A stretch of 64,000 bases of DNA from Eremomyces bilateralis CBS 781.70 (taxonomy: Eukaryota; Ascomycota; Dothideomycetes; Eremomycetales; Eremomycetaceae). The stretch's first letter is position 1. Each line of letters starts with the position of its first letter. Shown one piece after another: positions 34,001-59,438 of this stretch. Location of the stretch: the NCBI RefSeq assembly GCF_010015585.1, contig NW_022985082.1, forward strand, positions 301,150 through 365,149, given 5' to 3'. Under the pieces are notes generated by a model. That model saw nothing but the letters and a program-made list of their open reading frames with translations, did not search any database and had not been told where the DNA came from. The translations under genes were made by a program, and so were the position numbers.

Positions 34001-36074
34001 GCAACTGCCATCTCGACGATTCTGCCGTGGATTCTTTTTCTGCAACCTCGAGGAAGAAAGACTGGATAGACTCGTCTTCTTGAATCAGTTCCGACTGTTT
34101 CACCTCTTTTGAAGGGAATAGTAAACTCTTCAACGCTGCAGTTTTGGACGGAGCCCCAAGCGCAAAAATAGCTGCAACTGTGTCGTTCCACAAGTTTGTA
34201 AACGACGGATCTCCCCGAACTGCGTAAAGGATGGAAGCTAGGATGGGACCTGAGGGTGTGAGAAGTAGCCCTGGTAAATCGCCCTCGAGAAAGGCGAGCA
34301 CAAGTTCGCGGATGGTAACAGTCTCTGGGCCAACCCTCCTGTACTCCCCAGAAACGATGGAGTCCAATACCGATGCGACGCCATAGTTCTCTCCTTTTCC
34401 CAACGTCAAGAACTCGATCGCTCTGGATGCGACCAAATCCAGAGAGCGTTTCAGAGATTCTCGAACTTCTTCATTTTCGATGCGTTGAGCTAGGCGATAC
34501 ACCGACGCCCATCGCCGGCCTTGCACCTGCAGAGATTCTTGAATTTTTGACGAGTTCCTCGCTTCCGCGTCCGGTTTTGGCTCATTCTGCGCAACTGGAG
34601 TAGCCTTTTCCATTGTTGCAACAAAATCATCACTGATTTTGCTCCATTGATTCCCAATGACTAGATGCATCCCCGGAGTCCGAAGCACACTCTCGATGAC
34701 ACCAGCGCCTCCTCTTTCAGCCAGTGACCAGCCCATGTTCTTACCATTTTCCAAAACACAATTAGAGACTAGAGGGCACAAATATTGCTCAATCGCGAGC
34801 GGCACGCAGGGCTCCGGAAGACCCTGGATGAGGTCTTGACAAAGCAAGACGTATGCCTCCAAAGTATCCGTATCTTGATGTAGCCCTCTACTTTCCTCCT
34901 TGCTCGTGGCTGCGGATCGCAACGCATCAAGCAGTTCAATCGTCGTCTCTGGATCTTTAGGGAGTACTTCCGGAGGCAGTTCGTTGAGTAGCTTATGGAG
35001 CGATTTCCAATATCGAGGGCCACCACGCTGAGCGCCGCGTTGAATTAAGTGTAAAAGGGACGATTTCGGTGATTTCTTTGCTCTGTAGTACTTGGTCCAG
35101 AAATAAGTAAATTCCCTTGTCAGGAGGCAGAGAGCGTCGAGGAAAGCTGTCGACGACCGTGTTTGATCTGATTTCAACCCACTCCCGAGGTAAATACGAC
35201 AGATTGAATCCGGTGAGGCATCGACCAAGTCGGGTGTCTTGGTCAGGAAGAGTTGAAGTAGGGTGTGGGTAGATTGGCGCACTGGAGGGTCGGAATATAA
35301 ACCAAGCTCCCAAACTCTCAAATCCCCAACGACCTTCCCCCATTTATCTGCGTGCGTAGACAGAGTTTTGGTGTCAAGGTCTCGTAGCAATGCACTCAGC
35401 TGCTTCAGAGCAGCGGAAGCGACACGAGCATATTTTGCCTTGGAGTCTTCCTCGTTGACATATCTCTCGTCGCTCAAAGTCTTAGGCGATTCTCGCGCGA
35501 TGGCATCATAGCAGAAATCAATTATTTGACCCTGAAATGCGATTTTCAGGTTTTGTCTTTTTTCGTCGGAATCAAAGACAGCGCTGACGGACTCTTGCGC
35601 CGCTCTGGCGACAGCGTCGTCGGCTTCGTTGCAACTTGCCATCCATGGTCCTATGAGGCGAGAGAGATGCTTTGCCAGTCTCTTTCCTGCCGCTTTACCC
35701 AGAATTCCTAGGATGGTGTGCGCGAGCTGTCGAACCTTTCGAGCATTGTCGATGGAAAGGCGGGGGTACAAAGACACCCAAGCGTCCAAGAGTGCTCCAT
35801 CTTCTCCAGGGTTGTTCTGTGACACATAGTCGGCCAAATCTTGCAGTGCCTTTGATCTTGTGATATCTTCTCTCTTGGACAAGTTCTTCAACAGGACGAC
35901 AACGTTCGGATCCGATATTCGGGATAGGTCGGGGGCCTCGGCGAGATATGAAATGGAAGACGACGAGAACGTTGACTTTGAAGACGAATCGAAGGGATTT
36001 GCAAATCCACCAGAAAATGCTCCAGCAGCAGCACGACTGCTGCTTGCTTGAACTTTGACCTGTCTCTTACTCAT
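31066..36074 (-). CDS. LTN1: E3 ubiquitin ligase listerin (Ltn1/Rkr1)
   Basis: Exons 31353-36074 and 31066-31299 encode 1651 residues. The 53-nt intron (donor gtaagt, acceptor ccag) joins FS to NGSIVEGIIAWRKN in phase. Listerin marks stalled nascent chains on free 60S subunits with ubiquitin in ribosome quality control. Visible parts are the conserved N-terminal block (NPFDSSSKSTFSSSSISYLA, then DPNVVVLLKNLSKRE), a very long HEAT/ARM-like helical body, and a C-terminal RING after LKGQTECSICQSLI, with CxxC, CVTCKNMFHASC and CPLC ligands, ending QQFNYG. The start is the first ATG of the frame. Both domains are intact, and size fits the family. Confidence 0.93.
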
Positions 36075-36363
36075 TTCCAATGATACCCCAAAGCTGCATT
36101 GTTGAAACGATTGACAGCGTAATGCTCGGAATCACGAGTATATCAAGGCAAGAGAGTTCTCTAAGGATAAATGGTATCCTTCGGCTAGAAATGAAATCTC
36201 TTAACGACCTAACACCTTGATTTGAAATTGTAGGTGATCCGGTATAGACACCGGTGTTCCCAGTTCCGGCAGATGTATGTACAATTTGTCGTCGTCTCGC
36301 CAGGCCAAAATAGCTGCCTCAGGCACACAATATGCACGTCATCCAATCCAGTCTTTCGGCCAA
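36075..36363. other. LTN1 upstream region and transposon flank
   Basis: It holds the LTN1 promoter and the 3' flank of the neighbouring transposon. A short palindrome CCGGTATAGACACCGG lies near 36239-36254. I could not identify the terminal inverted repeat. Confidence 0.4.
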
Positions 36364-38110
36364 TCACCCTTCCTTCAGATTTGAGGAGCAAAACAAACCG
36401 CCCTGCCAGGCCTGCTCCGAAGGGCTTTTCCGCTTCCGGCCGCGCTTTCCTTTGCTCGTCTCAGCTTCTTTTGCAGCACGCTTCGCCCGCGCCTCCTCGA
36501 AGTCTTCATAGCTCATCACCTTCGCCCTCCCTAACACGGTAGACTTAGTCGACCGGCGACGTTTGGCTTCATCATTCTATTTGACTAGATTTTGATTGTC
36601 ATTCTCGAGCAGGGCACGTTCCGCGAAGGATATTTGGGCGGCGTTAAGCAGTTTCTCTAGGCACAGCTTGCTCTCGTCGTCAAGTGCATGAGTGTCCATT
36701 TCGACTAGACCACGTAGCGAACGAAGAGCGTCTACTGTTACGGGAGTCTGGAGTACTTCGTCTTGAGAACATGACCCAATGTTCACGTCATTGGCATTCG
36801 GAACAGTTACCTCCGCCGGTGGCTTCCAAATGTCTCTGAGTACCCTATCTGGGTTAAATGGGTACAAACCGCTTCTACCCCAGCCGGCCCTTATGTTATG
36901 AGCAGTGAACGCTTTCTCCCGCGCAGCGCTGTAGAGGGTTGTGAAGTGCTCCTTGCCAACTGTGTTTGCACCTCCTCGATAGAACCGCTCGGCTTCGTCG
37001 CGGTAGGCTGCCTTCAGGGGGCCAAATACTCCAATATCACAGGGCTTGAGCTTGTGAGAAGTGTGAGATGGGAGACGGCACAGGCGAATGTTATTTTCAA
37101 GGCAAAACTGTAAGATTTCGAGCGTTTCGAGCGTTCCGAAACCATCGCAGATCAGGACACGCGGTTTCTGACCCGCCCGCTCTTTGGTTTGCGGATCGAA
37201 CACTCGCGTCAACCACTCCAAGCTGATCTTAGAATCTGTGTATCCTGATTCGGAGCATGCATAGTGCCACCCAAGAGTTGAGAAGGTGGTCCAGTTGCTC
37301 CGATGGGTCGTTGGCGGCCAGATTACGAGAGGGGAGAGATACCTACCATCGCAGGAAATACATTCTACAGCTGTAATCATTGTCCGCTTGACACCCGCAC
37401 CTCTGTAATTTCGCGAGTCGTCCTTACCTACCAGGACTTTGACGGAACCCAGCATGCAGAGCATGACGCCAGTCTCATCCATGTTATAGACATTTTCTCG
37501 GGGAACGCCTGGATCCTCTAACACCTTTCCGATCACCTCAAACCAGTGTGTGACCTTATCATATATGTTGTTATCATGGCGATTCCAATCTACGGCCTTG
37601 ACCTTTCTTGCCTTGAGCACTGGGTTGCGTATCTCAAAGCCTTTTGGCCAATTCTTGTTCGGGGGCTTTGTCGCTGCTTTTGACGTAGAACGTCGACTTG
37701 CGATGCAAAACGCAAGCGACCGGACATGCTTGATTGGAATAGGGTAACCTAGATCGGCCGACCTTTTCAAGTACTGAGCGAAAGCTTTCTCTTCCGCCGG
37801 AGTTAGGTACTGTTGGCTCCTCGCCTTGTCTTATTTGGAGCGTCGTCCGTGGGCCCGATGCCATAGGGTAGATTTGGAGACTTTACCATGTTCCGATAGG
37901 GCACGGTATGTGCAAGGTTGAGATTCAGGGGGACCATCTACGAGGACTTGACTGGCGCGGTCCATGCTCACTGTGGTTGTGGTGGGGGTGGTGGTGACGA
38001 CGAGGAAAGAGACCAGAGAGCGAGCGCAACGGCCCAGGCGCTATCTGAGGTGGAAATGAGCCAGAACCCGAAGGAGGGTTTCTTTTTGGGCCCCATCTAT
38101 TTTTAGTTAC
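36240..38110 (-). mobile_element. pogo/Fot-like DNA transposon, borders approximate
   Basis: Borders are guesses: flanking DNA on both sides of the transposase is included, but no terminal inverted repeat or TA target duplication could be matched by eye. The element lies between LTN1 and an orphan membrane protein gene. Confidence 0.45.
36364..37965 (-). pseudogene. pogo/Fot-like DNA transposase with two nonsense codons
   Basis: From ATG 37965 to TGA 36364-36366 one frame of 534 codons runs through with only two internal stops: TAA at 37831-37833 and TAG at 36577-36579. Both can be read as CAA or CAG Gln codons changed by C-to-T at CpA, the preferred RIP context. The N-terminal part has a HTH_psq-like helix (YRALSEHGKVSKSTLWHRA), the middle a CENP-B-type region (YLTPAEEKAFAQYL), then the DDE domain with Asp in VYNMDETG, in VLICDGFGTL and in KPCDIGVFGPLK. 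The C-terminal tail STKSTVLGRAKVMSYEDFEE is typical of fungal pogo elements. Length and frame are otherwise intact, so inactivation looks recent. Terminal inverted repeats were not found. Confidence 0.85.
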
Positions 38111-38821
38111 CCACATTTGTTCGGTTTCTTGATGCTTCGCTGGGTGACAGTCGAGGAGAAGGCTTCTCGTGGTTGCGGTGAAATCCAGCATTGTCGATGA
38201 ATCTTGTGAAAGTTTTCAAAGTCAGCTCTCGCGAGCTTCCCTACAAGTCTCGCATCCCCTGCCACACGCTGAGGGTAATCTGGAACGGAGCGAATCACAG
38301 CCTTGAAGCAGATGATCGTGGCTTGCTGCAACCAGCTGCCAAAAGATACAAGCCACAAAACTATGCTGTGGCGTTCAACGCTCAGAGATCCTGAAAGTCA
38401 CAAACAGATACACACACACACAATTTATTATGCCCGGTGGCGATACAGAGACTTGCAAAAATCAGCTTCAGCTTTTTACATGCGCACGTTGTTTCTTACC
38501 TCAGCTCAGCCTCTTGTAGCCGCTCAGCGCTTGAATGCCCCGTTCGCCATCAGCTTCAATGCCTGCCCGAGCGACTGCTGCATTGTCGCCTCCCTATTAA
38601 GAAACCCCGCCTAAACAGATTTCATCAAGTCACGTGACTACACAGCGCAGGGTAAGCCAGCTTACCCTGCACGAGACGGCACGGGACGGCAGAGACAGGG
38701 AGACCCGCTCACCCGCGCCTACGTTCCCCAACTTTACGTGTTTCGACATTCATTATCATCATCCGACTCGTCTTTCATCACCCCATTTTCATGACACTCT
38801 ATTCTAAGGTGATTTAGTGCG
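38111..38821. other. upstream region of the orphan membrane protein gene
   Basis: About 700 bp with no supported gene. A perfect 10-bp palindrome GTCACGTGAC (38629-38638) lies 184 bp before the next ATG. A short ACACACAC run sits near 38410. Confidence 0.5.
38629..38638. promoter_or_regulatory. GTCACGTGAC palindrome (E-box)
   Basis: A perfect 10-bp palindrome centred on CACGTG, a fungal Cbf1/Pho4-type bHLH site, upstream of the gene at 38822. The binding factor is inference. Confidence 0.5.
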
Positions 38822-40031
38822 ATGATGCTCTCTTCATGGCCGTTCATGCGCGGACTTATGCTACTGCTTAGCAGTTTGTCACTCGTTTTCGCCACTTGGG
38901 ATGATAATTTTGCGGGCCTCTTCCCAGAATATAACAATGGATTTCAGCTGCTCTTGCGCAACAACTGTTCCTCACAACACGCCATTTACCTAGAGGATCG
39001 AGACGGCGATACCAGGGTCGAGCCGATTCTAAAGGCATTTGGTCTAGATTCCGCGGCAAATAATGTTGTCCAGTGTCTTCTCACATCTACCCCAGAAGCC
39101 ATCAAAGTTAAAATGGCATCAGCCCAGGTCGGTTCTTTTTTTCTTTTTTTCGAAAGATTCGTTAACGAGCCTCAGGTTATTCTCGGGTACATTCGCTCTC
39201 AAGCCAGTGGTAACTGATTGCTAAAATTAACCCTTACATAGTCTTACTCCATCAATCCTCGCAACTCTCGGCGCCAGCCCCCAGGAGACCGCTATGCTCT
39301 CCGTTTTCGCTAAAAGACCATTGTTATCAGCTCTTCTCGCCGCCGGCTCACCTGCAGTCTTTCCCCTCCGATCATTCGAATACACAAGGACTATCGAGGA
39401 TCTGCTGGAGCGCGATTTTCAAAAACCCGCAATTTTCAATGACCTTGATCCCGTTATTCTCGTCCTGGAGTATCTTCTCGCTGCTGCATCGGTGGGAAAC
39501 ATTGGCGAGCTATGCTATCGACTAGGAGGACGCGTCCTCAGTGCTATATTTACAGGCGACGAACAACATTATTTTATCTGGGCTTGGATTGGTTTGGCTA
39601 TTCATGGTTTTGGAGCGCTTACTCTTTACCGTAGAACGAAGGTTACAACTCTTGGAGGAGAGTACGACCAGCACCATGGGCACACCGTTTTTAACCAGTT
39701 CAAGCTACAGGCAAGACAAACTCGACTTTGCATTGAGATTCGCCGAGAATCCCTTCTCTTCCTAGCTATCTACTGGTTTACCACCTTACTAACAGTGTGC
39801 CACATCGTCTACGGCACGATTCTATTTTCCAGTATGCTGTTTATCTCAGTGGAAGATGCCATTTCTGTTATCGCCCGGCTGATGGGAAGCGTCATCGTGT
39901 GTCGGATTGTTCTAAGTTATGAGTTAGTTAACCTCCAAAGCATCGTTAAGGAGATTAAGAAGGAAAGAATCGCAGATATTACAGATGCGACCGCTGAGAG
40001 GGAAATGGAGGAGAGGCAGGGATCGAAATGA
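38822..40031 (+). CDS. orphan multi-pass membrane protein with microexon
   Basis: Exons 38822-39127, 39176-39186 and 39242-40031 give 368 residues. The middle exon is only 11 nt and encodes VILG with its neighbours; using it gives KMASAQVILGLTPSILATLG, which resembles a family of fungal membrane proteins of unknown function as I remember them. The N terminus is hydrophobic (GLMLLLSSLSLVFATW), then a soluble part with LEDRDGDTR, then about five membrane segments (for example LLSALLAAGSPAVFPL, WAWIGLAIHGFGALTLY, LFLAIYWFTTLLTVC and TILFSSMLFISV). The C terminus is a charged helix ending AEREMEERQGSK. No function can be given. It converges with the HET-NACHT-WD40 gene. Confidence 0.6.
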
Positions 40032-40738
40032 ACGCTGACGCAAATTGACACGAACAGCGGCTCTATGTAATGTCTATGTGGATACTTCACTTACTAAAAA
40101 ATAAAAACCGAAATAGTCCAAATCTACGCTTAGTTAACTTGTCGCCTGCTGAAAACCAAAGGATATAACCAGTTGATATTCTTTCTCCTTTGAGCATGGT
40201 CGTCACCTACGGTACGGGGCGAAATAGATGGTGTTGAAATTCATTGCGTTCTTCCACGCTAGGACACAGGTAGCCTTTAGGAATGGAATCGCCAAGCCAG
40301 GCCCCCAGGTCCGAGCTGAGCCACCACACCAGACGGCAGACATCTTGCACTTTTGGCGCCTTAGAGCATAAGGCTAAAATTACATTACAAGCCTTACATC
40401 AGCCGCGCTTGGCCTTGGCGCGCTAACCGGGACAGAGTCATCATCTAACTAGTTAGAGGTACGTACTAACTTTAATGAATGGTCCGACAAAGCGCACCTG
40501 TACAGTGTGGCCGTGCAACCATCACGAGGTATAACCAACGTACTGGGCTCGCCTGCGCTCCACCTACGAGGAGAAGAAGCCACCACGGTCGGACCCAAAA
40601 CTTGGATCCTGAAGAAATAGTTCTATCACAATATTACCACTTCATCCCTCGTACCAATCTCATATCTTACAGTTACCGCACCATATATTCACACTGAACC
40701 CCAGATCCCTCGATGAAAGAGATATTAAGAAGAAAAAA
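40032..40738. other. intergenic region between convergent genes
   Basis: About 700 bp between two stop codons, AT-richer than the surroundings. A small plus-strand frame (40479-40697) is not supported. No repeat or RNA gene was seen. Confidence 0.5.
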
Positions 40739-43700
40739 TTAAGAAATAGAGTTGAAGCTGCACATCCATACCTTTCCAGATCCCACGCCGATACCTACAG
40801 TCTTCGCGGACACAGATGAACATGACGGCCGATACTCTGAAGGTAGCCACAAAATGTTCTCAGAATCATATGTGATCCACACTCCAGTTGAACTTAACCC
40901 TACCCCTTTATATTGGAGACCTTGAGGATGTGTTTCAATCGCGTTCGTAAAGGAAGCTGATGACGGGTCTATCGCGATAGTCCCGATATCAGTTTGAAGT
41001 AAAGAACTGGTAGCGTCGAATAGTACGTTATGGAGACTCTTTTCAACCTCGAGCGTCTGGAGACACGCGCCGCTGTTCGCATCCCAGATCTTGACGGTGG
41101 TGTCCATCGACGCTGAAGCGAGCCGGGTCGAGTCGGACGAGAAGACCACCGACATGACCCAACCGATGTGGCCCTTAAGGGTCTGGAGACACACGCCGCT
41201 ACTTATATCCCAGATCTTAACGGTCTCGTCGTCCGACGCGGAGGCGAGCCGGGTCGAGTCAAGTGAGAAGGCCACCGAGCGGACTAGCTCGCTATGGCCC
41301 TCGAAGGTCTGGAGACACGCGCCGCTGCTCGCATCCCAGATCTTAACGGTCTTGTCGTACGACGCGGAGGCGAGTGCGGTCGAGTTACATGAGAAGGCCA
41401 CTGAGCTGACCCCATTGCTGTGGCCCTTAAGGGTCTGGAGACACACGCCGCTACTCGCATCCCAGATCTTGACGGTCTTATCATCCGACGCTGAAGCGAG
41501 CCGGGTCGAGTCACGTGAAACGACCACCGACATAACCCTCTCGCCGTGGCCCTCGAGGGTCTGGAGACACGCGCCGCTGCTCGCATCCCAGATCTTGACG
41601 GTCTCGTCGTCCGACGCGGAGGCGAGCCGGGTCGAGTCAAGTGAGAAGGCCACCGAGCGGACCCAATCGCTATGGCCCTCAAGGGTCTGGAGACACGCGC
41701 CGCTGCTCGGATCCCAGATCTTGACGGTCTCGTCGTACGACGCGGAGGCGAGCCGGGTCGAGTCACGTGAGAAGACCACCGAGTAGACCGGACCGCTATG
41801 GCCCTTAAGGGTCTGGAGACACGCGCCGCTGCTCGGATCCCAGATCTTAACGGTCTTGTCGTACGACGCGGAGGCGAGCGCGGTCGAGTTACATGAGAAG
41901 GCCACTGAGCTGACCCTATTGCTGTGGCCCTTAAGGGTCTGGAGACACACGCCGCTACTCGCATCCCAGATCTTGACGGACTTGTCGAATGATGCGGAGG
42001 CGAGCCGGGTCGAGTCACGAGAGAAGGCTACTTCACTGATCCTACCGCTATGACCCTCGAGGGTCTGGAGACACGCGCCGCTGCTCGGATCCCAAATATT
42101 GACGGTCTTGTCTTCCGACGCAGAGGCGAGCGCGGTCGAGTTACATGAGAAGGTTACTGAGCTGACCCGATCGCTATGGCCCTCGAGGGTCTGGAGACAC
42201 GCGCCGCTACTCGCATCCCAGATCTTGACGGTCTTATCGGACGACGCGGAGGCGATCCGGCTCGAGTCACGTAAGAAGACCACTGAGCTGACGGAATCGC
42301 TGTGGCCCTTAAGGGTCTGGAGACACGCGCCGCTGTTCGCATCCCAGATCTTGACGGTGGTGTCCCTCGACGCTGAAGCGAGCCGGGTCGAGTCGGACGA
42401 GAAGACCACCGAGCCGACCCAACCACTGTGGCCCTTAAGGGTCTGGAGGCACGCGCCGCTGCTCGGATCCCAGATCTTGACGGTCTTGTCGTACGACGCG
42501 GAGGCGAGCCGGGTCGAGTCACGTGAAAAGACCACCGATATGACCCGATCGCTATGCCCCTCAAGGGTCTGGAGGCAGGCGCTCCATTCATCGCTTATAG
42601 CCGGCTGAATCGTGATCCCGTTCGGCTCTTCGTGCTTGAAGAGTCCTCTAATTAGACTGCGCGCCGGACTGAATAGTAGTGCAGACGCATACGCCTGGAG
42701 AGGACTGGTTTCTATTGCCAGCTTGTGAGACATGATAAATCGGCGCGCATCTTTGACGAGTTTGAGCAATCCAGACTCGTCCGCGTTTCTCTATATCAAG
42801 TTAGTGTATTATGTATGCAAAGGCTGGGCTAAGGATTACTTGAATGAGGTCCTCGAGTTTCGCCATAGAGACCACCCCTTCCGACATACTTCTACAAAGG
42901 CTCAGAGCCTCGAGCCAGTAGAGGTATCTCTGACGTAGGAATATGTTGATAGATCCACCATCTTGGAGGTCATTAGTCGCATTCTTAGTCGGTGCACAGT
43001 CCAGCAGATGGTCGATCCAATAGATACTCGAGTATCGCACTGAAGATAGCGGATCTGGATCGGGTTGCTTGACTTGATCAATGGGGAGCCCCGGAGCACC
43101 TAGACCATAGACGTCACGTCTTAGGGTTTTAGACATGACTTGAAGTGATTGGGAGAATATGGTGCGATGTGTGTCTTCTATCCCAGATGGATGGATCTCG
43201 TTGCGTTGCTTGTGGGCCAAGAAGTCCTTCGCCGATTGGTGAACAAGGTATATAGTGTGCTCTCGGATATTCAGAAATGAGCCACAAAGCCCAATAATCT
43301 CCGATAGAGCTTCGTATTTGCCAGCAACTCTGTTAAGCATATTGACGAAGCATACCAACTCGTCTAAAGTAATTGGCCGGCGTACTGTCAAGACGATGGC
43401 CAATATGCTTTTGCATAGCTTTGCATATCTCGAACTGTAGATCTGATCCAACATCCGTTTGTACAGAAGATCGAGACCTGGTGGAAACGCTAAAGCCATC
43501 TCTTCAGCTTCCCATTCAGAGGCATTGGCGAGTTCTTGGCACACCAAAGCCACCCAAAGAAAAGTGCCCTTTGCGTTGAGCGACAGGTAATGATGGACAT
43601 CGTCTCGTGTATCATCGCTGTATCTCTTTCGTTCCGCTAGCATATCCACCTTGAACTGGATGAATGTCGTAATGGCAGCAGCGACCGATTTTTCGTTCAG

Positions 43701-45086
43701 TTCAAGACACAGCCTCACCTTCTGCGTCGCAGCGTCGAGATTCTCCTCGATACTAGGCCAGTTTCGACTAGAAATGATCCACTTGATGCGGGGGGATGTA
43801 GACGACATCTGTACAATGAAGTCCAACAGTTTCGGTAAGCCTTCCACGCATTCGTCGAGTGCGTCGACGACCAAATACGTCGTAGTTAAGCTCCGGTCGT
43901 GAAGAATGTTGGTGAAGATCTCAGATAGAACAACCCAGGCATTTGCGTCCTCGAAGAGTGTTTTGCCGGCATGATCGTACTTCTCCCGTACGTGTGAGAT
44001 CAGAGATGGCTGTTGGTCGATAAGCAAATATATCAGACCTCGTAGCACGGCCGTGGCATTGTTGATTCGAGAATCAGTCGCCTGACAGAAGAAGTAGGAG
44101 AGAAGATCCGACTTGGCTATACATATATTTAGCTCGTCGATAATACCGCAGAGCAGCATAGTTTTTCCCTTTCCGGGATCGCCCTTAATCCAGAGCAGCC
44201 GGCTGCTTTGGTCGTTGCGCCATTGTTGAAAGTCGGAGTTGTCGAGGATCCAGCGGTACGAGTCTTCTAGTAAGCCACCCTTCGTAGCTTCGATACGCTT
44301 CTTGTCATGGCGCGGGTCGGTGAGTCGTAAATCTTGGATACATTTCTCTAGCTTATCGATCTCTTCTTGAAGCCGTTTAAACGCGCTCTTCATCCCTTCG
44401 CCATAACGAGGTGATATATATACGCCGAAAATGCCTAGCAATGAGTAGGCTCGATCTTCCTTAAGCTTCGTCTGGCGGGATTGTATCCATGAAAATCGTT
44501 CTTCGACGCTGAATTGAGATAAAGGGCCTCCTTGAAGTGCTGACTGAGGAATACCCGTTATCTCGTAAGTTTGTTGCTTTAGCGAATTTCCGTCACCAAG
44601 TCGCTTGCCTTCCCGGGAGAAGAATTCGATCGACGCTGGCACCAGGAGCTCTTGGAGTGTCCATCCCCGAGTGAACCACCTGCTTTTCCGGAAATCCGGT
44701 TCCCAACTGTCTCTTGAGTCCTCACACAATTTCCTCTTCCTAGTCGAAACATCCGACAGGTACACGTAGCACCGAGTCGCCTTGCGATACCACTGAAACA
44801 TCGAGTTGATCGCGCGCGAGAGTTCGCCGTGGTTTGTCTTGTCGATGCAGCAGGTATCAATCCAAAAGTATTGTAATCCATCTTGTCTGGTTTGATCTCT
44901 ACAGAACCGGATCTTCTCATACCCAAGCTTTTTCTCGCCGGTGCCATTTGTCACATCTTCGAAAGTCACCTCCTCGGTATCCGCTCCCCATGTGTGCGAG
45001 AGTATGGCATAGGGAGGAATCGGATCGTCGCCGACTAGGTCCTTTGTGAGCCTGACTCTGCTTTTCTCACGTTGTAGAAGTCGCAT
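40739..45086 (-). CDS. HET-NACHT-WD40 STAND receptor (HNWD family, HET-E/HET-D/HET-R-like)
   Basis: Exons 42840-45086 and 40739-42790 encode 1432 residues; the 49-nt intron (donor gtaatc, branch ctaac) joins in phase 0. The HET domain covers about residues 25-220 (PYAILSHTWG, WIDTCCIDK, RGWTLQELLVP and DRAYSLLGIFGV). A linker with GGLLEDSYRWILDNSDFQQW leads to a NACHT NTPase with P-loop GDPGKGKT (302-309) and Walker B-like TYLVVDALDEC. Twelve complete and one partial WD40 repeat of 42 residues follow, then a C-terminal domain. In Podospora anserina, proteins of this design recognise non-self partner alleles through the WD repeats and trigger cell death through the HET domain. Frame, P-loop and repeats are intact, so the receptor may be functional. 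Confidence 0.93.
41069..42580 (-). repeat. twelve 126-bp WD40-coding tandem repeats
   Basis: Each 126-bp unit starts at an ACLQTLEGHS-type codon block and ends at WDPSSG or WDASSG. Twelve complete units run from 42580 down to 41069, and a thirteenth is broken off after about 10 residues. Most units differ at only a few codons, grouped after GHS and around the Asp-Lys-Thr motif. Confidence 0.9.
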
Positions 45087-45695
45087 GGTAGTGGGGGGAA
45101 GCTTGGCGCTAGCAGATGTCGGATCAGCGAGCAGTACGTGAAGCTGCTATCGGAGTGAAAAAGTGTAGAGGCCCCCGGCCCTACAGATATACGAGAGTCA
45201 CGGCAAGATTATTAATGCAGTTTGTAGCCTTGGACTCCTAGAGCTCATGCCTTGGCCTGCGACAATATGTTACGTGCATAATCATTCCACGCTGGCTAGG
45301 ATTGTTCATCGTTTCGAATAGAAGTACCTGCCTGTATGCCGAACTTGCGCGATCTTGCACGCTATGGCACAGACATCTCTGATGATGATTTCTAAATATC
45401 TTAATGTGACTCTAAGGCTCGGATAATGGTCTTGGATGAGTTTTAAAGGCAAGAAGGGTATAATAGTGGTGCTGTATGGTAATCGAGGAGGTCTGCTATG
45501 AGGATGATGACATACTTTCCGAAAACCAGGCGAGAACGTGGCCACCCCAATGAATTTTTTCAATTCAAATTGTCTAGCAAATTAAGAAATGGCTGTAAAG
45601 CACGATTCATCTTAAGTTATGGGATTATAATTGTATGTGCAGAGCCTGGATTGCTTTGAATTCGAAGTACCTACGAATTTGCCCGTCACGCAGGG
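45087..45695. other. upstream region of the STAND receptor gene and piggyBac 5' flank
   Basis: About 600 bp, partly AT-rich (near 45550-45620). It should hold the receptor promoter and possibly remains of the piggyBac element. No intact gene is seen; a minus-strand frame at 45306-45563 is unsupported. Confidence 0.45.
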
Positions 45696-46322
45696 ATGCC
45701 CGCCATAGCTACAGGGAGGGAGGTTACTATTTTGTTGACTTGTTCGGAAGGTTTTTGGCGACGATATACTCTACGGAAGGGCCTACCAATCCCGATACTA
45801 ATCGATGACTATAATCATTATATGGGCGGCGTTGATATCGCAGATCAGCTCCGGTCCTGCTCATCAACGCAGCGCGTGTTCTTTCGGAATTGGTATCCAA
45901 TTTGGTTCTGGATTCTTGATACAGCTATCATCAACGCTTTTCTTATATCGAGGCAGATCTCCGAAACAAGTCTAAGCCAGAGAGACTTCCGGAGAGAGCT
46001 CGCCGCAGCGCTATTTAAGTACTCCGACGAGGTCTATAGAGACCATAGGACAGAGCTATTCCATAGGTCTACGACTCCGCAACCGCAACAGCTCAAAAAG
46101 CCTATCTCAGAGCACCGTCTAATTGCTCTAGATAAACAGGCTCGTTGCTATATCTGTCGAAGCGTCTTTTTTGCTACAAAGAAACGGAAATTTGGCGACG
46201 AGATTGTCGTCAACGGAGTTAACCGTAAGCGTCCTGGAAAGACAGGCTTCGGCTACTCTGTTTGTAATATCCCTATCTGTACAGGAGGAGGCTGTTGGCA
46301 TCATCATTTGAGCGAAATCTAG
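45696..46322 (+). pseudogene. truncated piggyBac-like transposase (C-terminal part)
   Basis: The 208-codon frame matches the C-terminal third of piggyBac-type transposases: DDYNHYMGGVDIADQLRS is the family's most typical block, followed by FRNWYPIWFWILDTAIINAF and a Cys/His-rich end (RCYICRS, CTGGGCWHHHL). The first two thirds, with the first catalytic Asp residues, are missing; full-length proteins have about 550-650 residues. Part of the remaining frame is open upstream of the first ATG. The piece is an immobile remnant beside the STAND receptor gene. Confidence 0.82.
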
Positions 46323-46490
46323 CTTGGAATTTTACAGTGGCAGCAAATATACGGATTTCATTGGTAGATGACCCCTGTACAAGTGTCACCGTGCCATCCT
46401 AGGCTAGGGGGCATGTTTTCAGCAGACGAAGGGATAGGACGGCCATGAGCAAATGAAAGCATATCAACCAAATTAATCCAAAAGCCGAAC

Positions 46491-46499
46491 TATTTAAGG
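46491..46499 (+). promoter_or_regulatory. TATA-like box
   Basis: TATTTAAGG lies 77 bp upstream of the ATG at 46568 and fits a core promoter for the NmrA-like gene. Confidence 0.4.
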
Positions 46500-46567
46500 A
46501 CTCAATGGGACTGAACAAAGAGCTGCCTATTCCGAATACCTAATACCTTATCCAAATTTGGTACATC

Positions 46568-47342
46568 ATGTCGGAACATATTCTCGTTCTCGGTGCTACA
46601 GGCAAGTACCAATCCAGCGCTCCTCGTCCAAGATCTAATCTTCTTCTTCCAGGTGTGACTGGGCTAGCATTTTGTACCACTGCTTTGAAGGCGGGTCATC
46701 AGTTGACTCTATATGTCCGAAATCCAAGCAAACTACCAGCGGAGATTTCCGGCGACTCCAAAGTCACGGTGATCGAAGGATTATTATCCGATGCAACTGG
46801 ACTACAGAAAGCTGCGGCATCAGGTGCAAAAATTTTCGTATCCTTTGCAGGGCCTACCTACGGCTCCAAAGGCACAGTAGGTCCCTGTCTCCTTAGGCCT
46901 CAAAGTCCTTCCGGGTGCAGCGATAACTTTAATGCAGCCGGTTACCGATGCCATGAAGTTGATATTCCCTCTTCTGATCGAAAATCACTTCAAGAGGGCA
47001 TTGGTGCTAGGCACCTGTTCCTTCACGGCGCCCGAAGACAAAGGAGCACTGAAATGGAAAGCATCGGTGGTCTTGATCAAGATCATCGGCGGTACGGCTT
47101 TTCAAGAATTCCAGGGCCTCGGCGCGTTCGTCAGCTCGCAGGAGGTGTCTCAATTGAAGTGGACTCTTTTCAGAGTTCCTTTCCTCGGGAATGGTCCTGA
47201 GAAACCCGTGCACGCTTCATACACAGGCTCGGGCGAAGACGGCATGTTCTTATCGAGGCAAAGCATCGTCACTTGGGTTTTGACGGAGCTGAAGGAAGAT
47301 TCGGATTGGGTTGGGAAGACCCCTGTTCTTTCAAATTGGTAA
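46568..47342 (+). CDS. NmrA-like/atypical short-chain NAD(P)-binding protein
   Basis: Exons 46568-46601, 46653-46876 and 46938-47342 give 220 residues. The first intron has a GC donor (gcaagt) and joins to give ILVLGATGVTGLAFCTTAL, a perfect dinucleotide-binding motif that is lost without splicing. The second intron (61 nt, gtaggt) is in phase. Further Rossmann-fold features are LTLYVRNPSKLP and KVTVIEGLLSDATGLQKA, and the C-terminal part has LKWTLFRVPFLGN. Such proteins act as NADP-dependent redox enzymes or redox sensors; the substrate cannot be told. It has no catalytic YxxxK motif, as expected for the NmrA group. The neighbouring MFS gene converges on it. Confidence 0.75.
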
Positions 47343-47953
47343 TGACCCTCGGTGGATTTTGTTTAATAGCACGGCATTGGTACGTACTGCTTGCAACTAC
47401 AAGCTGCCAGTCTGTTGCACCATGCAGCTCTTACAGAGGGTCTCGACAGATTGCAAGCACGGGACCGAAGGCTTAAGCTTTTCACTATCATTGAAATAAG
47501 CGTTGTTACAATCTGGTGTTTCCCGGGGCTCCACCAGCGTGAATACAATTGACTATGCGGTTAAAACGCTCTATGCACGCAATAGCAATCCCGTTATCAA
47601 CCTCGTTCCGGGGAAGGCCTAGTCGAAGAGAAGGAAAACTTAGACAAAGGCCACTGGAATTTCCGTGACTCTAGCGAAGACGGAGGGCAGCTGGGTGGTC
47701 CTGAAATTCACGATCGATCTTTTCCACCCCGGAAGGAATTGATTAGCTTGACTACTTTTATTGTCCGATGGGCCATAGACGGGACGTTTCTCAACAATGT
47801 TGTATAGAGGAACTATCGAAAAGATTGTGAGATACATATTGTTTCCATCTGTTCGTGTCTCGCCACAATGATGGTCCAAGAGTACCTATATTGTCTCCGT
47901 CCCATGTACGCACGAGCGAACTTGATATATCGACTTGATATCCAAGCAGCAAC
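47343..47953. other. intergenic region between convergent genes
   Basis: About 600 bp between the NmrA-like stop and the MFS stop. Open frames on both strands are short and without domains. Confidence 0.5.
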
Positions 47954-49895
47954 CTACCTTAGAGCAGTCTTTCCATTGCCAAGCAAGACAGTTTGCGGTT
48001 GGCCCGGAGAAGGACTGACCGATTTCTTCTCGTCGACATACTCGCCCTCCGTCGTCAGTGGTTCAGGCTGCAGCTGAGTAGTGTTCCGACGACGACGGAA
48101 ATGATCATCAATGTATCTGATGGCGGCGAGAGTCAAGCCGGCTGATAGGACACCGATGTTGATGCTGAAGCCTCGGCGGTACTTGGGTTTGTCCTCGGAA
48201 CGGAAGATCTGCGCGCCGTAGATACCAGCGATATTGGCACCCATGATCACCCTGGAGTTCATGTCGCGTTAGTACCGGCCGGCACAAGGAATGAAGGGTC
48301 GGGACATACATGGCCATAGCAAGCGCTCGCTCTTCCGAATCAGTACAGGTGAGAGACATCCAGGTAATGTTGAGCGGGTGAGAGAATGTCCCAAAGATCT
48401 GCGTCCAAACCACGCCGAAGTATTTGACCCCCTGGCGGTTGTTGAATTCGGTGAAGATACGATTGAAGACGTAGCCTAGTAGATGGCAGCCGAAGCCAAG
48501 CATGACCGTTTCTCCTCGTCGATTGCTGAGAGACGTTAGCATCGCTCGACACATTATTGGGGTAGGTTGCGTCCGGCTTGGACCAAACTTACAAGTGATC
48601 GGAAATATAGCTGAAGGCGAAGGATACCGGAACTTGGACGAATAGACCAACGGAGGCCATCGCGTTACTCGTGAGGGCAGGGAAGCCAAAGCCAGAGACC
48701 AGCGATGGAGCGTAGGTATCAAAGGCACGCTGAGGGCCGTTGTTGCACAATGTAATGAACAGATGAACCCACATCCGCCAGTGGGTGAACTAGTGACGTT
48801 AGATCCTTGGCCTGTAAATGTGATGCATCCTTCCAGAGCTTTTAGAGCATAGTATGCCCCGGGTTGTAAGATTATAGGCAACAGGATGGAAACTTACAGC
48901 TTTCTTGAACGCACTCAGTCCGATGGTCTTCTTCTTTTTGCCTTTCATGGGGTCATCGAGTTGAACACGAGTGCGGAGAATATGTAGCTCCCTCTTGGTG
49001 AACAGGGAATAGCGAGGGATAAAAGTGCTGCTCGGGTTCTTGAACGAGTCAGGGAGGAGGAATCCAAGAATAAATCCACTGAAGATCGTGAATCCCCCCA
49101 TCAGGACAAAGAGCCAGAACCAACCAGGTCGTCCACCAACGCCTCGCATATGAAGGATGGCATATGCAAGGAGCTTCGCTGACGCTTGGCCGAGCTGGTT
49201 GCCGAAGTAGAAGATCATGATTCGCTTCGCTGTCTCCTTTCGGGTGTACCAGGTCGAGACTGCCGAACGTTAGAAACCGAGCGAGACTTCGATGTTCGGG
49301 TAACATTACGCGTCCAAAGTCCACCAGGGATAAATCCCGACTCCGTCATTCCAAGGATGAACCGAGTCGCAATGAAGGAGCCATAGCTACGCTGGAATGC
49401 TTGGAAGGTGCTGACGGTGCCGAAGAGGAACAACTGAAGTGTGAGCCATTTGCCGGGGCCGACTCGATAAAGAATCATGTTGGATGGGATTTCGAAAAGC
49501 ACGATGCCCAGGGAGAGCATTTGTTGGCCCACATTGAATTGGTTCTGCGTGACGCCGATATCTTTCATGAAGTTGTCCGTGATAGCGTTCGCAATGTTTC
49601 CTCTGTCGAGCTCTGCAAGGCAATGATTGAGAAGTTGTTCGTTGGGAGTAGAAGGTCGATGTCAACTTACGTAGACAGAAGAATCCAAGAGTGAGCAGAG
49701 GCATAATAATGCAATCTAGCCTAAATAGCCATTAATCAAAACTTGCCACAGTCCTGGGATTGTGCACACTCACTTCCGCTTCGCCCTCCCCTCCTCCTCC
49801 TTCGTCCAGTCGACATGTACTGCAAGGGGCAACTCATCATCCCTGGGAGCAGGGTACTCGTCCGGATTGGCAGATTTGAGATCTACGCCGACCAT
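47954..49895 (-). CDS. MFS permease, allantoate/nicotinate (anion:cation symporter) family
   Basis: Seven exons (49774-49895, 49671-49720, 49310-49612, 48898-49259, 48593-48789, 48310-48525, 47954-48251) encode 515 residues; all phases agree. The family signature is strong: FCLQLDRGNIANAITDNF, then VGQQMLSLGIVLFEIPSNM, FIATRFILGMTESGFIPGG and TLSTWYTRKETAKRIMIFY. These match the Dal5/Tna1/Thi73 branch, which imports organic anions such as allantoate, nicotinate or other carboxylates at the plasma membrane. About twelve membrane helices are expected, with a hydrophilic loop (RTRVQLDDPMKGKKKK) in the middle. The C terminus is a charged cytosolic tail. Substrate is unknown. Introns range from 50 to 108 nt. 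Confidence 0.88.
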
Positions 49896-58400: not shown

Positions 58401-58673
58401 GAAGGCCCTAACTCCTGAGGGCTGCGGGCTGACGGTTCTGATAAACTCCACTCTCCTACTCCATCGAGGTGGATTCCTAGCCCCACGACCTCGGAGAGGC
58501 TGGAAATATTTCCAGTGATCAGACACTTCATCCCCAACTCTGCCTCAGGCGATCATACGATCCAGCGACCTCGGTATTATTATTCAATATGAATTATTTG
58601 TGATCTCCTTTCTATCTCATCCAATTCCACTTGTGCCAATTCTACGCGACTCTTACTACGATCGCCCATTTCA
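55442..58673. other. 3.2-kb gene-poor region
   Basis: It begins with the promoter of the GPI-anchored protein gene and ends with that of the SET-domain gene. No gene is supported. A minus-strand frame at 57365-57589 ends in a hydrophobic stretch (FLLLLLTSPSFVLLLW) but has no ATG start and no partner exon that I could identify. No RNA gene was recognised. Confidence 0.5.
55623..55628 (-). promoter_or_regulatory. TATA box of the GPI-anchored protein gene
   Basis: On the minus strand this reads TATAAA inside CATATAAAACTCCC, about 180 bp upstream of the ATG at 55441. A TATA box fits a strongly expressed wall protein gene. Confidence 0.5.
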
Positions 58674-59438
58674 ATGCCGCTACCAGCGAAACAGACCTTA
58701 CCACGGAACTGGCCCTCTTCGATCACGTATACTCCCATACCAGTTCACTCGCCGAACCTCTCTTCAACGGAGCTTCGAACCCTCCATCCGCCTCGATCCA
58801 CGTCTTCTCTGGTTCCAGCACTGAAAATACCTCTGCATTCTCCGTCGTATATCTCCATCCTTCCGATCACCACACCTGGGCATCCGGCGAGAGGACAACA
58901 CGGTCTCTTCGCCGCCGAGGACCTGCGGCCCGGTTCGCACATTATATTCTATATTGGCTTCGTACATGGGAACTCGGACAAGGAAAACCATAGCACGAGC
59001 GACTATGACCTGAGCCTTGTGCGGGAGGCGGTGAGTGTCGCTGGTGCCAAAGGTGAAGAGCAGGGGCAAGATGTCATTGTAGAACTTGGAGTGGATGGCG
59101 AGCAGATGGGCAACGAGGCTCGTTTCGTCAATGACTATCGCGGTGTCCCTGCTTCCCCTGCCCCTCACAAGTCTTCCTCGCATGCAAATGGAATCTCACG
59201 CTCTCAAGCATCCACTACAAAAGGTGCCTTGGTCCAAGCACCGAATGCTGAGTTTCGCGACGTATGGGCCGAATACGCCCATGGCAAGGAGACGAGAATA
59301 GAGAGATGCATTGCGATTTTCGTAAGAGAGGCCGGCAAAAGTGGGAAATGGAAGAACGGAATCCGTAGAGGTGAGGAGATTTTGGTAAGTTATGGCAAAG
59401 GATTTTGGGGCGCAAGGAAGGAAATGGATGAGGCATAA
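58674..59438 (+). CDS. SET-domain protein, putative lysine methyltransferase
   Basis: A single-exon frame of 254 residues. The N-terminal half has a SET-N block (TTPGHPARGQHGLFAAEDLR, then IIFYIGFVHG, about residues 67-99). The SET-C block follows with GNEARFVNDYRGV (146-158) and GEEILVSYGKGFW (233-245). The usual RFxNHSC segment is here RFVNDYRG, as in the small fungal SET proteins, and no Cys-rich post-SET motif is present. A Ser/Ala-rich insert (about 158-190) separates the two blocks. It may methylate a protein lysine, but the substrate is unknown and activity is not certain. The start is the first ATG of the frame. Confidence 0.62.
   Translation: MPLPAKQTLPRNWPSSITYTPIPVHSPNLSSTELRTLHPPRSTSSLVPALKIPLHSPSYISILPITTPGHPARGQHGLFAAEDLRPGSHIIFYIGFVHGNSDKENHSTSDYDLSLVREAVSVAGAKGEEQGQDVIVELGVDGEQMGNEARFVNDYRGVPASPAPHKSSSHANGISRSQASTTKGALVQAPNAEFRDVWAEYAHGKETRIERCIAIFVREAGKSGKWKNGIRRGEEILVSYGKGFWGARKEMDEA

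What the first reader, a model, noticed from the sequence alone, without database searches (positions are those of the whole stretch)
40739..45086. Apparently intact allorecognition-type HET-NACHT-WD40 receptor
The sequence shows HET, NACHT (P-loop GDPGKGKT) and twelve WD repeats in one open, two-exon gene. Proteins of this design control vegetative incompatibility in Podospora (HET-E, HET-D, HET-R). An intact copy with homogenised repeats suggests a working non-self receptor. Function in this species is inference.
Basis: partly seen in the sequence, partly recalled or inferred. Interest (0 to 1): 0.75.

Follow-up and report, generated by a model that had tools for sequence, protein, structure and literature searches.

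The report
Fungal HET-NACHT-WD40 immune-type receptor gene
An apparently intact fungal sensor gene of a known kind that can trigger cell death on meeting something foreign; its repeats vary at the binding face, as in known relatives, but whether it tells self from non-self cannot be seen from one genome.

Summary
On the minus strand, 45086-40739 encodes an uninterrupted 1432-residue protein in two exons (49-nt intron 42839-42791): HET, NACHT with P-loop GDPGKGKT, winged helix, then exactly twelve 42-residue WD40 repeats, the domain order of Podospora HNWD proteins (HET-D, HET-E, HET-R). 'Homogenised' needs trimming: repeats average 76% pairwise amino-acid identity and 84% to consensus, just under the published 85% cut-off. 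Variation peaks at the sites published for P. anserina: 5 of 111,930 four-column sets, theirs included, vary as much. But 13 bacterial WD40 arrays vary at the same columns, so this marks a propeller binding face, not allorecognition. Tests for positive selection are mixed. Best reading: an intact HNWD-type NOD-like receptor whose ligand binding drives NACHT assembly and HET-mediated cell death. Allorecognition is only one possible use; a 2025 review says most fungal NLRs are not allorecognition genes (passages). Side finding: fourfold-site GC is 82% in the array, 53% in the rest of the gene. New member of a known kind.

The parts
40739..45086 (-). whole gene, ATG to stop, 1432-aa protein
   Evidence: open frame after removal of one 49-nt intron
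42840..45086 (-). exon 1 (749 codons): HET, NACHT, winged helix
42791..42839 (-). intron, 49 nt, GT...AG with CTAAC branch-like site, phase 0
   Evidence: sequence signals only; no transcript
40739..42790 (-). exon 2: linker, twelve WD40 repeats, C-terminal tail, stop
44736..45011 (-). HET domain match (residues 26-117)
   Evidence: PF06985 E 1.1e-14, profile 1-93/146
43689..44261 (-). NPHP3_N/NACHT nucleotide-binding domain (residues 276-466)
   Evidence: PF24883 E 2.1e-38, PF05729 E 1.7e-12
44160..44183 (-). P-loop (Walker A) GDPGKGKT, residues 302-309
   Evidence: read in the sequence
43209..43427 (-). winged-helix domain (residues 554-626)
   Evidence: PF22939 E 6.4e-7
41072..42583 (-). 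array of twelve 42-aa WD40 repeats (residues 819-1322)
   Evidence: blade strands predicted at pLDDT above 70 over most of it
40742..41071 (-). C-terminal tail (residues 1323-1432), candidate cryptic blades
   Evidence: no Pfam hit for residues 1331-1432; repeat profiles score above zero only on its first 9 residues; strands predicted, mostly below pLDDT 50

Best explanation
This is an intact NOD-like (STAND) receptor of the fungal HET-NACHT-WD40 class. The twelve repeats and the C-terminal tail probably fold into two beta-propellers whose variable top face binds a protein ligand. Binding would release the NACHT ATPase to oligomerise, which brings the N-terminal HET (TIR-like) domains together and triggers regulated cell death of the hyphal compartment. 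Shown here: domain order, open frame, twelve repeats, and concentration of variation at the columns that the literature places on the propeller's binding face. Inferred from the HNWD literature: ligand binding by the WD face, oligomerisation, cell death. Not shown: the ligand, and whether it is a conspecific allele (allorecognition) or a foreign organism's protein (immunity); I put allorecognition at about one in five.
For: Gene model and domains. The four codons under strong selection in P. anserina HNWD repeats (7, 9, 25, 27 of PMC1805685, passages; my columns 13, 15, 31, 33) rank 3rd, 2nd, 1st and 6th in entropy among 42; 5 of 111,930 four-column sets, this one included, reach that sum. For the seven published high-dN/dS positions, 2 of 1,000,000 random seven-column sets reach the sum, and 5 of the 7 are among the seven most variable columns. 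All 12 repeats carry a different residue combination at the four sites. pN/pS by counting is 1.17 at the 4 sites, 1.34 at the 7, 0.31 at the other 35. The two most alike repeat pairs are far apart: 6/10 at 98% nt and 2/12 at 94%, as repeat shuffling would leave. The top PDB match by fold and by sequence is the highly repetitive propeller protein 2ymu, with Apaf-1 or apoptosome entries three times in the first 20 fold matches.
Against: With a free synonymous rate the 4-site test does not favour omega above 1: omega 0.06, 0.56 and 0.00 on three trees, 2dlnL 3.8, 0.1 and 12.7 away from 1 on the low side, with the synonymous rate running to extreme values; the 7-site test gives omega 2.2, 3.8 and 3.4 with 2dlnL 2.2, 4.9 and 5.3. 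Column 33 is not flagged singly on any tree. Bacterial WD40 arrays vary at the same columns (13 of 80 loci usable). The third most alike pair by nt, 7/8 at 92%, is a neighbour pair. The longest identical tract between repeats (65 nt) is reached in 15 of 500 shuffles. The fold match to 2ymu superposes poorly as a whole (TM 0.37/0.43, rmsd 16.9). The HET-NACHT part (residues 1-820) has no PDB relative by sequence (one hit, E 0.27). No expression, population or ligand data; no fungal relatives could be compared.
Confidence: 0.8

Rival explanations
1. It is a true heterokaryon-incompatibility (het) gene: its WD40 face recognises allelic forms of a conserved host protein in the partner strain after hyphal fusion, as HET-D and HET-E do with HET-C.
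For: Same domain order and the same variable columns as HNWD proteins; twelve repeats lie within the 10-12 reported for reactive het-e alleles (passages of PMC12222747).
Against: Most fungal NLR and HET genes are not allorecognition genes, and three of the five HNWD paralogues are het genes (PMC12881547, passages); no population data here; an 11-repeat het-e allele is unreactive with the common het-c alleles, and functional het-d alleles all have 11 repeats (PMC12222747, passages).
Confidence: 0.2
2. It senses other organisms (bacteria, viruses, other fungi) or modified host proteins, i.e. it is an innate-immunity receptor with no role in strain compatibility.
For: The review's view of most family members; PMC2873952 finds the repeat dynamism hard to explain by incompatibility alone and suggests pathogen receptors (passages); bacterial tandem WD40 arrays with the same variable columns.
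Against: No ligand known; not testable here.
Confidence: 0.6
3. It is a silenced or non-reactive allele: open but not functional.
For: Inactive alleles are frequent in P. anserina (passages); CpA-context transitions are over-represented among repeat differences, 23 of 156 sites against 43 of 816, as light RIP would leave; three 750-bp blocks beside the gene (one overlapping its first 86 bases) have CA/TA of 0.69-0.91 against a window median of 1.76.
Against: 1432 codons open with the motifs present; purifying pattern at the other 35 repeat codons (omega 0.21-0.27).
Confidence: 0.15

Closest known systems
Podospora anserina HNWD family (HET-D, HET-E, HET-R, hnwd1, hnwd3)
   Same: Order HET, NACHT, WD40; 42-aa repeats; similar repeat number; variation at the same repeat positions. 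CA/TA and TG/TA by domain are close to the published het-D row (here HET 1.32/1.05, NACHT 1.39/1.50, WD 2.05/1.68; het-D 1.25/1.16, 1.13/1.16, 2.06/1.59); the het-E row is not alike (1.89/1.92, 1.43/1.29, 1.15/0.83).
   Different: Repeats less alike (76% pairwise here; Dyrka et al. quote about 85% within a P. anserina gene); repeat unit differs in sequence from the one printed het-e repeat; species and orthology unknown; no HET-C or HET-V partner identified.
Fungal NLRs with high internal conservation of repeats (HIC, Dyrka et al. 2014)
   Same: NLR with tandem, same-length, similar repeats after a HET effector.
   Different: 84% to consensus by my count against a T-REKS PSIM of 0.85; T-REKS itself was not run.
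Bacterial proteins with tandem WD40 arrays (Nostoc and others) and the solved repeat propeller 2ymu
   Same: Long tandem WD40 arrays, 39-54% identity (best segment) in the best 80 loci kept of at least 571; same variable columns in the 13 usable; one of six scanned shows a NACHT N-terminal helical domain (L018); 2ymu is the top fold and sequence match.
   Different: No HET domain in the 25 best families listed for each of six of the 80 (56 to 70 families matched each, so the lists are cut); array not richer in fourfold GC on average (27 loci, mean difference -0.06).
Apaf-1
   Same: Nucleotide-binding oligomerisation domain followed by WD40 propellers (recalled); among the fold matches.
   Different: CARD effector and caspase recruitment instead of HET (recalled).

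Membership tests
HNWD (HET-NACHT-WD40) NLR architecture | N-terminal HET domain | tested here: met
   PF06985 55.5 bits over cut-off 22.5, partial profile 1-93/146
HNWD (HET-NACHT-WD40) NLR architecture | central NACHT with intact P-loop | tested here: met
   PF05729 47.9 bits, PF24883 132.6 bits; GDPGKGKT at residues 302-309
HNWD (HET-NACHT-WD40) NLR architecture | C-terminal 42-aa WD40 repeats | tested here: met
   twelve, all 42 aa
HNWD clade proper (orthology with het-d/e/r) | groups with P. anserina HNWD genes in HET and NACHT trees | not testable with these tools
   no fungal genome collection or HNWD sequences on hand; own genome not held
NLR with high internal conservation (HIC) | repeats above 85% internal identity over at least 100 aa (T-REKS PSIM 0.85) | tested here: inconclusive
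   84% mean identity to consensus, 76% pairwise; T-REKS not available
NLR with high internal conservation (HIC) | hypervariable positions under diversifying selection | tested here: inconclusive
   position match strong; dN/dS tests mixed; same columns vary in bacterial arrays
heterokaryon-incompatibility (het) gene | polymorphic alleles that co-vary with compatibility and cause cell death on fusion | not testable with these tools
   needs isolates and fusion tests
double seven-bladed propeller (PMC12222747 model) | two closed propellers using C-terminal cryptic blades | tested here: inconclusive
   model pLDDT 72, pTM 0.53, drop at exon-2 residues 411-414, near the start of repeat 9; tail mostly below 50

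The most novel reading that the evidence does not exclude
The repeat array is kept alike and GC-rich by GC-biased gene conversion between repeats, so that conversion leaves a compositional footprint (fourfold GC 82% in the array, 53% in the rest of the gene) by which shuffling receptor arrays could be found from sequence alone.
Probability: 0.2. Interest if true: 0.45.

Novelty: new member of a known kind. Interest (0 to 1): 0.28.

Why it matters
It adds an apparently complete HET-NACHT-WD40 receptor, with a gene model ready for testing, and shows that the positions varying among its repeats are those known from Podospora. The bacterial control also shows a limit: that pattern alone does not mark allorecognition. 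If the GC step proved general, it would offer a sequence signature of repeat conversion in receptor arrays.

Tried and rejected
Single-sequence AlphaFold2 of exon 2 gave pLDDT 40 and was set aside; a second job with 27 of the 80 fetched bacterial relatives (alignment A1) gave pLDDT 72. In that model about eight blades match the eight-bladed designed propeller Tako8 (332 columns, TMt 0.96, rmsd 1.4) better than seven-bladed designs (TMt 0.85, rmsd 3.2-3.3); the output does not say which residues. I do not rely on this: near-identical repeats make ring closure ambiguous and the published HET-E model is 7+7 (section 17 of PMC12222747).

The first likelihood script had an optimiser failure in its free-rate fits (the alternative scored below its null on one tree); it was replaced. 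Its fits with the synonymous rate tied to the other codons gave 2dlnL of 47-60 for the 4- and 7-site sets, but that assumes equal synonymous rates.

Cryptic blades by sequence: profiles from the 12 window repeats, from 235 bacterial repeats and from both scored above zero in the tail only on its first 9 residues. Flanking inverted repeats around the gene: none in 35500-48500 at 25 nt or more except one palindrome inside the gene. GC-biased conversion: current differences from the repeat consensus show no excess towards G or C (45 of 540 W>S, 84 of 972 S>W), and of four neighbouring genes measured three have GC3 of 0.71-0.76 and one (Ltn1) 0.54, so a GC-rich founding unit explains the step as well. 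The species could not be named; the neighbouring genes found look to me like those of a filamentous ascomycete, from recall, as those calls name no organism.
Full report
OBSERVATION. On the minus strand the frame opens with ATG at 45086 and ends with a stop at 40739. One 49-nt intron, 42839-42791, with GT...AG ends and a CTAAC branch-like site, joins the two open stretches in phase 0 and gives 1432 residues. Without splicing, the frame of exon 1 runs into a stop inside the intron and the product would lack WD repeats. Pfam gives HET (residues 26-117, 55.5 bits, cut-off 22.5, though only profile positions 1-93 of 146), NPHP3_N and NACHT (276-466), a winged helix (554-626), and WD40 in twelve stretches. 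The P-loop is GDPGKGKT at residues 302-309. LVVDALDE (Walker B-like) and RGWTLQELL (HET-like) are in the translation; I recall those motif names, they come from no call. The HET-NACHT part (residues 1-820) has no solved relative by sequence (one PDB hit, E 0.27). Open stretches in other frames over the array (up to 262 aa) are by-products of a 126-base period.

REPEATS. The twelve repeats are each 42 aa. Mean pairwise identity is 76% aa and 83% nt; identity to consensus is 84% aa and 89% nt; leaving out seven variable columns, pairwise aa identity is 85%. Dyrka et al. 2014 (PMC4986451, passages and section 8) call repeats highly conserved at T-REKS PSIM 0.85. By my count this array falls just short; T-REKS itself was not run. 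By nucleotide identity the most alike pairs are 6/10 (98%), 2/12 (94%), 7/8 (92%) and 8/11 (91%), so the two closest are far apart but the third is a neighbour pair; mean identity shows no steady fall with distance along the array. The longest identical tract, 65 nt, is reached in 15 of 500 column shuffles, so recent exchange is suggested, not shown.

VARIABLE COLUMNS. Paoletti et al. 2007 (PMC1805685, passages and section 6) report codons 7, 9, 25 and 27 of the HNWD repeat under strong diversifying selection; PMC12222747 (passages and section 17) uses positions 10, 11, 12, 14, 30, 32 and 39. The het-e repeat printed there aligns with mine at an offset of one, so these are my columns 11, 12, 13, 15, 31, 33 and 40. 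Counting S12, W14, D30, K32 in that printed repeat gives the S-W-D-K listed for a het-E repeat at the four sites in PMC2873952 (passages), which fixes the four as my 13, 15, 31 and 33. I wrote the seven columns into the script from recall, in the same turn as one search showed them; they agree. The four rank 3, 2, 1 and 6 of 42 in entropy. Of all 111,930 four-column sets, 5 (this one included) reach their sum; of 1,000,000 random seven-column sets, 2 reach the sum of the seven. All twelve repeats differ in their four-residue combination.

CONTROL AGAINST OVER-READING. Thirteen of the 80 yielded six or more chained 42-aa repeats by my anchor; in these the most variable columns on average were 31, 15, 13, 12 and 33, and in all 13 the published four columns lay within the top 1.2% of four-column sets. 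The pattern therefore marks the variable face of tandem WD40 arrays more widely. It fits a receptor; it does not single out allorecognition.

SELECTION. Counting gives pN/pS 1.17 at the four columns, 1.34 at the seven, 0.31 at the other 35. By likelihood with the synonymous rate shared across the repeat, columns 13, 15 and 31 exceed 1 significantly on all three trees tried (one of them a star tree), column 40 on one, column 21 on one, column 33 on none. With a free synonymous rate the four-column set gives omega 0.06, 0.56 and 0.00 (2dlnL against 1: 3.8, 0.1, 12.7, on the low side) with extreme synonymous rates, and the seven-column set gives 2.2, 3.8 and 3.4 with 2dlnL of 2.2, 4.9 and 5.3. 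Twelve repeats are too few; positive selection is likely by analogy, not demonstrated.

COMPOSITION. Fourfold-site GC by block is 0.55 (residues 1-275), 0.57 (276-560), 0.53 (561-818), 0.82 (array) and 0.41 (tail). In the array, 14 of 14 columns that are fourfold in every repeat have a G or C majority (p 1.3e-4 against 0.53 in the rest of the gene). Of the 80 bacterial loci I listed frames for 31 and measured 27: the array differs from the upstream part by -0.06 on average, is higher in 7 of 27, by at most 0.13, and lower by up to 0.33. Against a conversion bias: differences between repeats show no excess towards G or C, and NAD-GDH, hexosaminidase and Prp3 frames in the window have GC3 of 0.71-0.76, Ltn1 0.54. 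In the published CA/TA and TG/TA table, het-D has a like step between HET/NACHT and WD, het-E does not; that paper's table of GC contents (S2) was not seen. In two listings (7 of 7 papers; 12 of 58) I found no fungal NLR paper that discusses GC-biased conversion: the term occurs in PMC9262711 only in a reference title, and in one orchid paper. C-to-T and G-to-A differences are more frequent in CpA context, 23 of 156 sites against 43 of 816, as light RIP would leave; sites in related copies are not independent.

STRUCTURE. AlphaFold2 with 27 bacterial relatives predicts blade strands at good confidence over most of the array, a confidence drop at exon-2 residues 411-414, near the start of repeat 9, and low-confidence strands in the tail (pLDDT 72, pTM 0.53). 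Foldseek ranks the highly repetitive propeller 2ymu first (48% identity, E 8.4e-50), though the whole superposes poorly (TM 0.37/0.43, rmsd 16.9), and lists Apaf-1 or apoptosome entries at ranks 12, 16 and 19. PMC12222747 models HET-E as two seven-bladed propellers made of 11 repeats and three cryptic C-terminal blades (section 17). Twelve repeats plus a tail fit such a layout, but ring sizes are open here.

SURROUNDINGS. Neighbours include NAD-GDH, GH16, Prp3, Sld2-like, Inp1-like, carboxylesterase and CorA-like frames, hexosaminidase and listerin, and remains of mobile elements: a DDE_1 transposase frame at 36577-37830 and a weak DDE_Tnp_1_7 fragment at 45660-46322 (E 0.0017, under its cut-off). 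No second NLR and no glycolipid-transfer (HET-C-like) domain turned up among the 15 other window frames scanned with Pfam (8, 7); unscanned or intron-broken genes could be missed.

MECHANISM AND VERDICT. By analogy with HNWD proteins (PMC9262711 and PMC12881547, passages): ligand binding by the WD face, NACHT oligomerisation, HET-driven cell death. The gene looks like an intact receptor of a known kind. Whether it serves allorecognition or defence against other organisms is open; the review's statement that most fungal NLR and HET genes are not allorecognition genes makes defence the better bet.

Noticed in passing
41072-42583: Fourfold-site GC is 82% in the repeat array against 53% in the rest of the gene.
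   Followed up: partly
41072-42583: Transitions between repeats are enriched in CpA context (23 of 156 against 43 of 816 sites), as light RIP would leave.
   Followed up: partly
36577-37830: 417-aa open frame with a DDE_1 transposase domain, E 3.6e-28.
   Followed up: no
45660-46322: Weak C-terminal transposase match (DDE_Tnp_1_7, E 0.0017, under cut-off), a likely remnant just upstream of the receptor gene; low CA/TA (0.77) and TG/TA (0.60) hint at RIP.
   Followed up: no
46544-47342: NAD(P)-binding (NmrA-like) gene split over two frames: intron or broken gene.
   Followed up: no
58593-59438: Frame with a weak SET match (E 4.6e-4, just under cut-off), 13.5 kb from the receptor; HET-R's target HET-Va in P. 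anserina is a SET protein (passages), but this frame shows no other HET-Va domain. Probably coincidence.
   Followed up: partly
39231-40031: 266-aa frame with long hydrophobic stretches, no Pfam match, about 0.7 kb beyond the 3' end of the receptor gene.
   Followed up: no
40954-40995: A 27-nt imperfect palindrome (85% complementary) lies in the C-terminal tail coding sequence.
   Followed up: no
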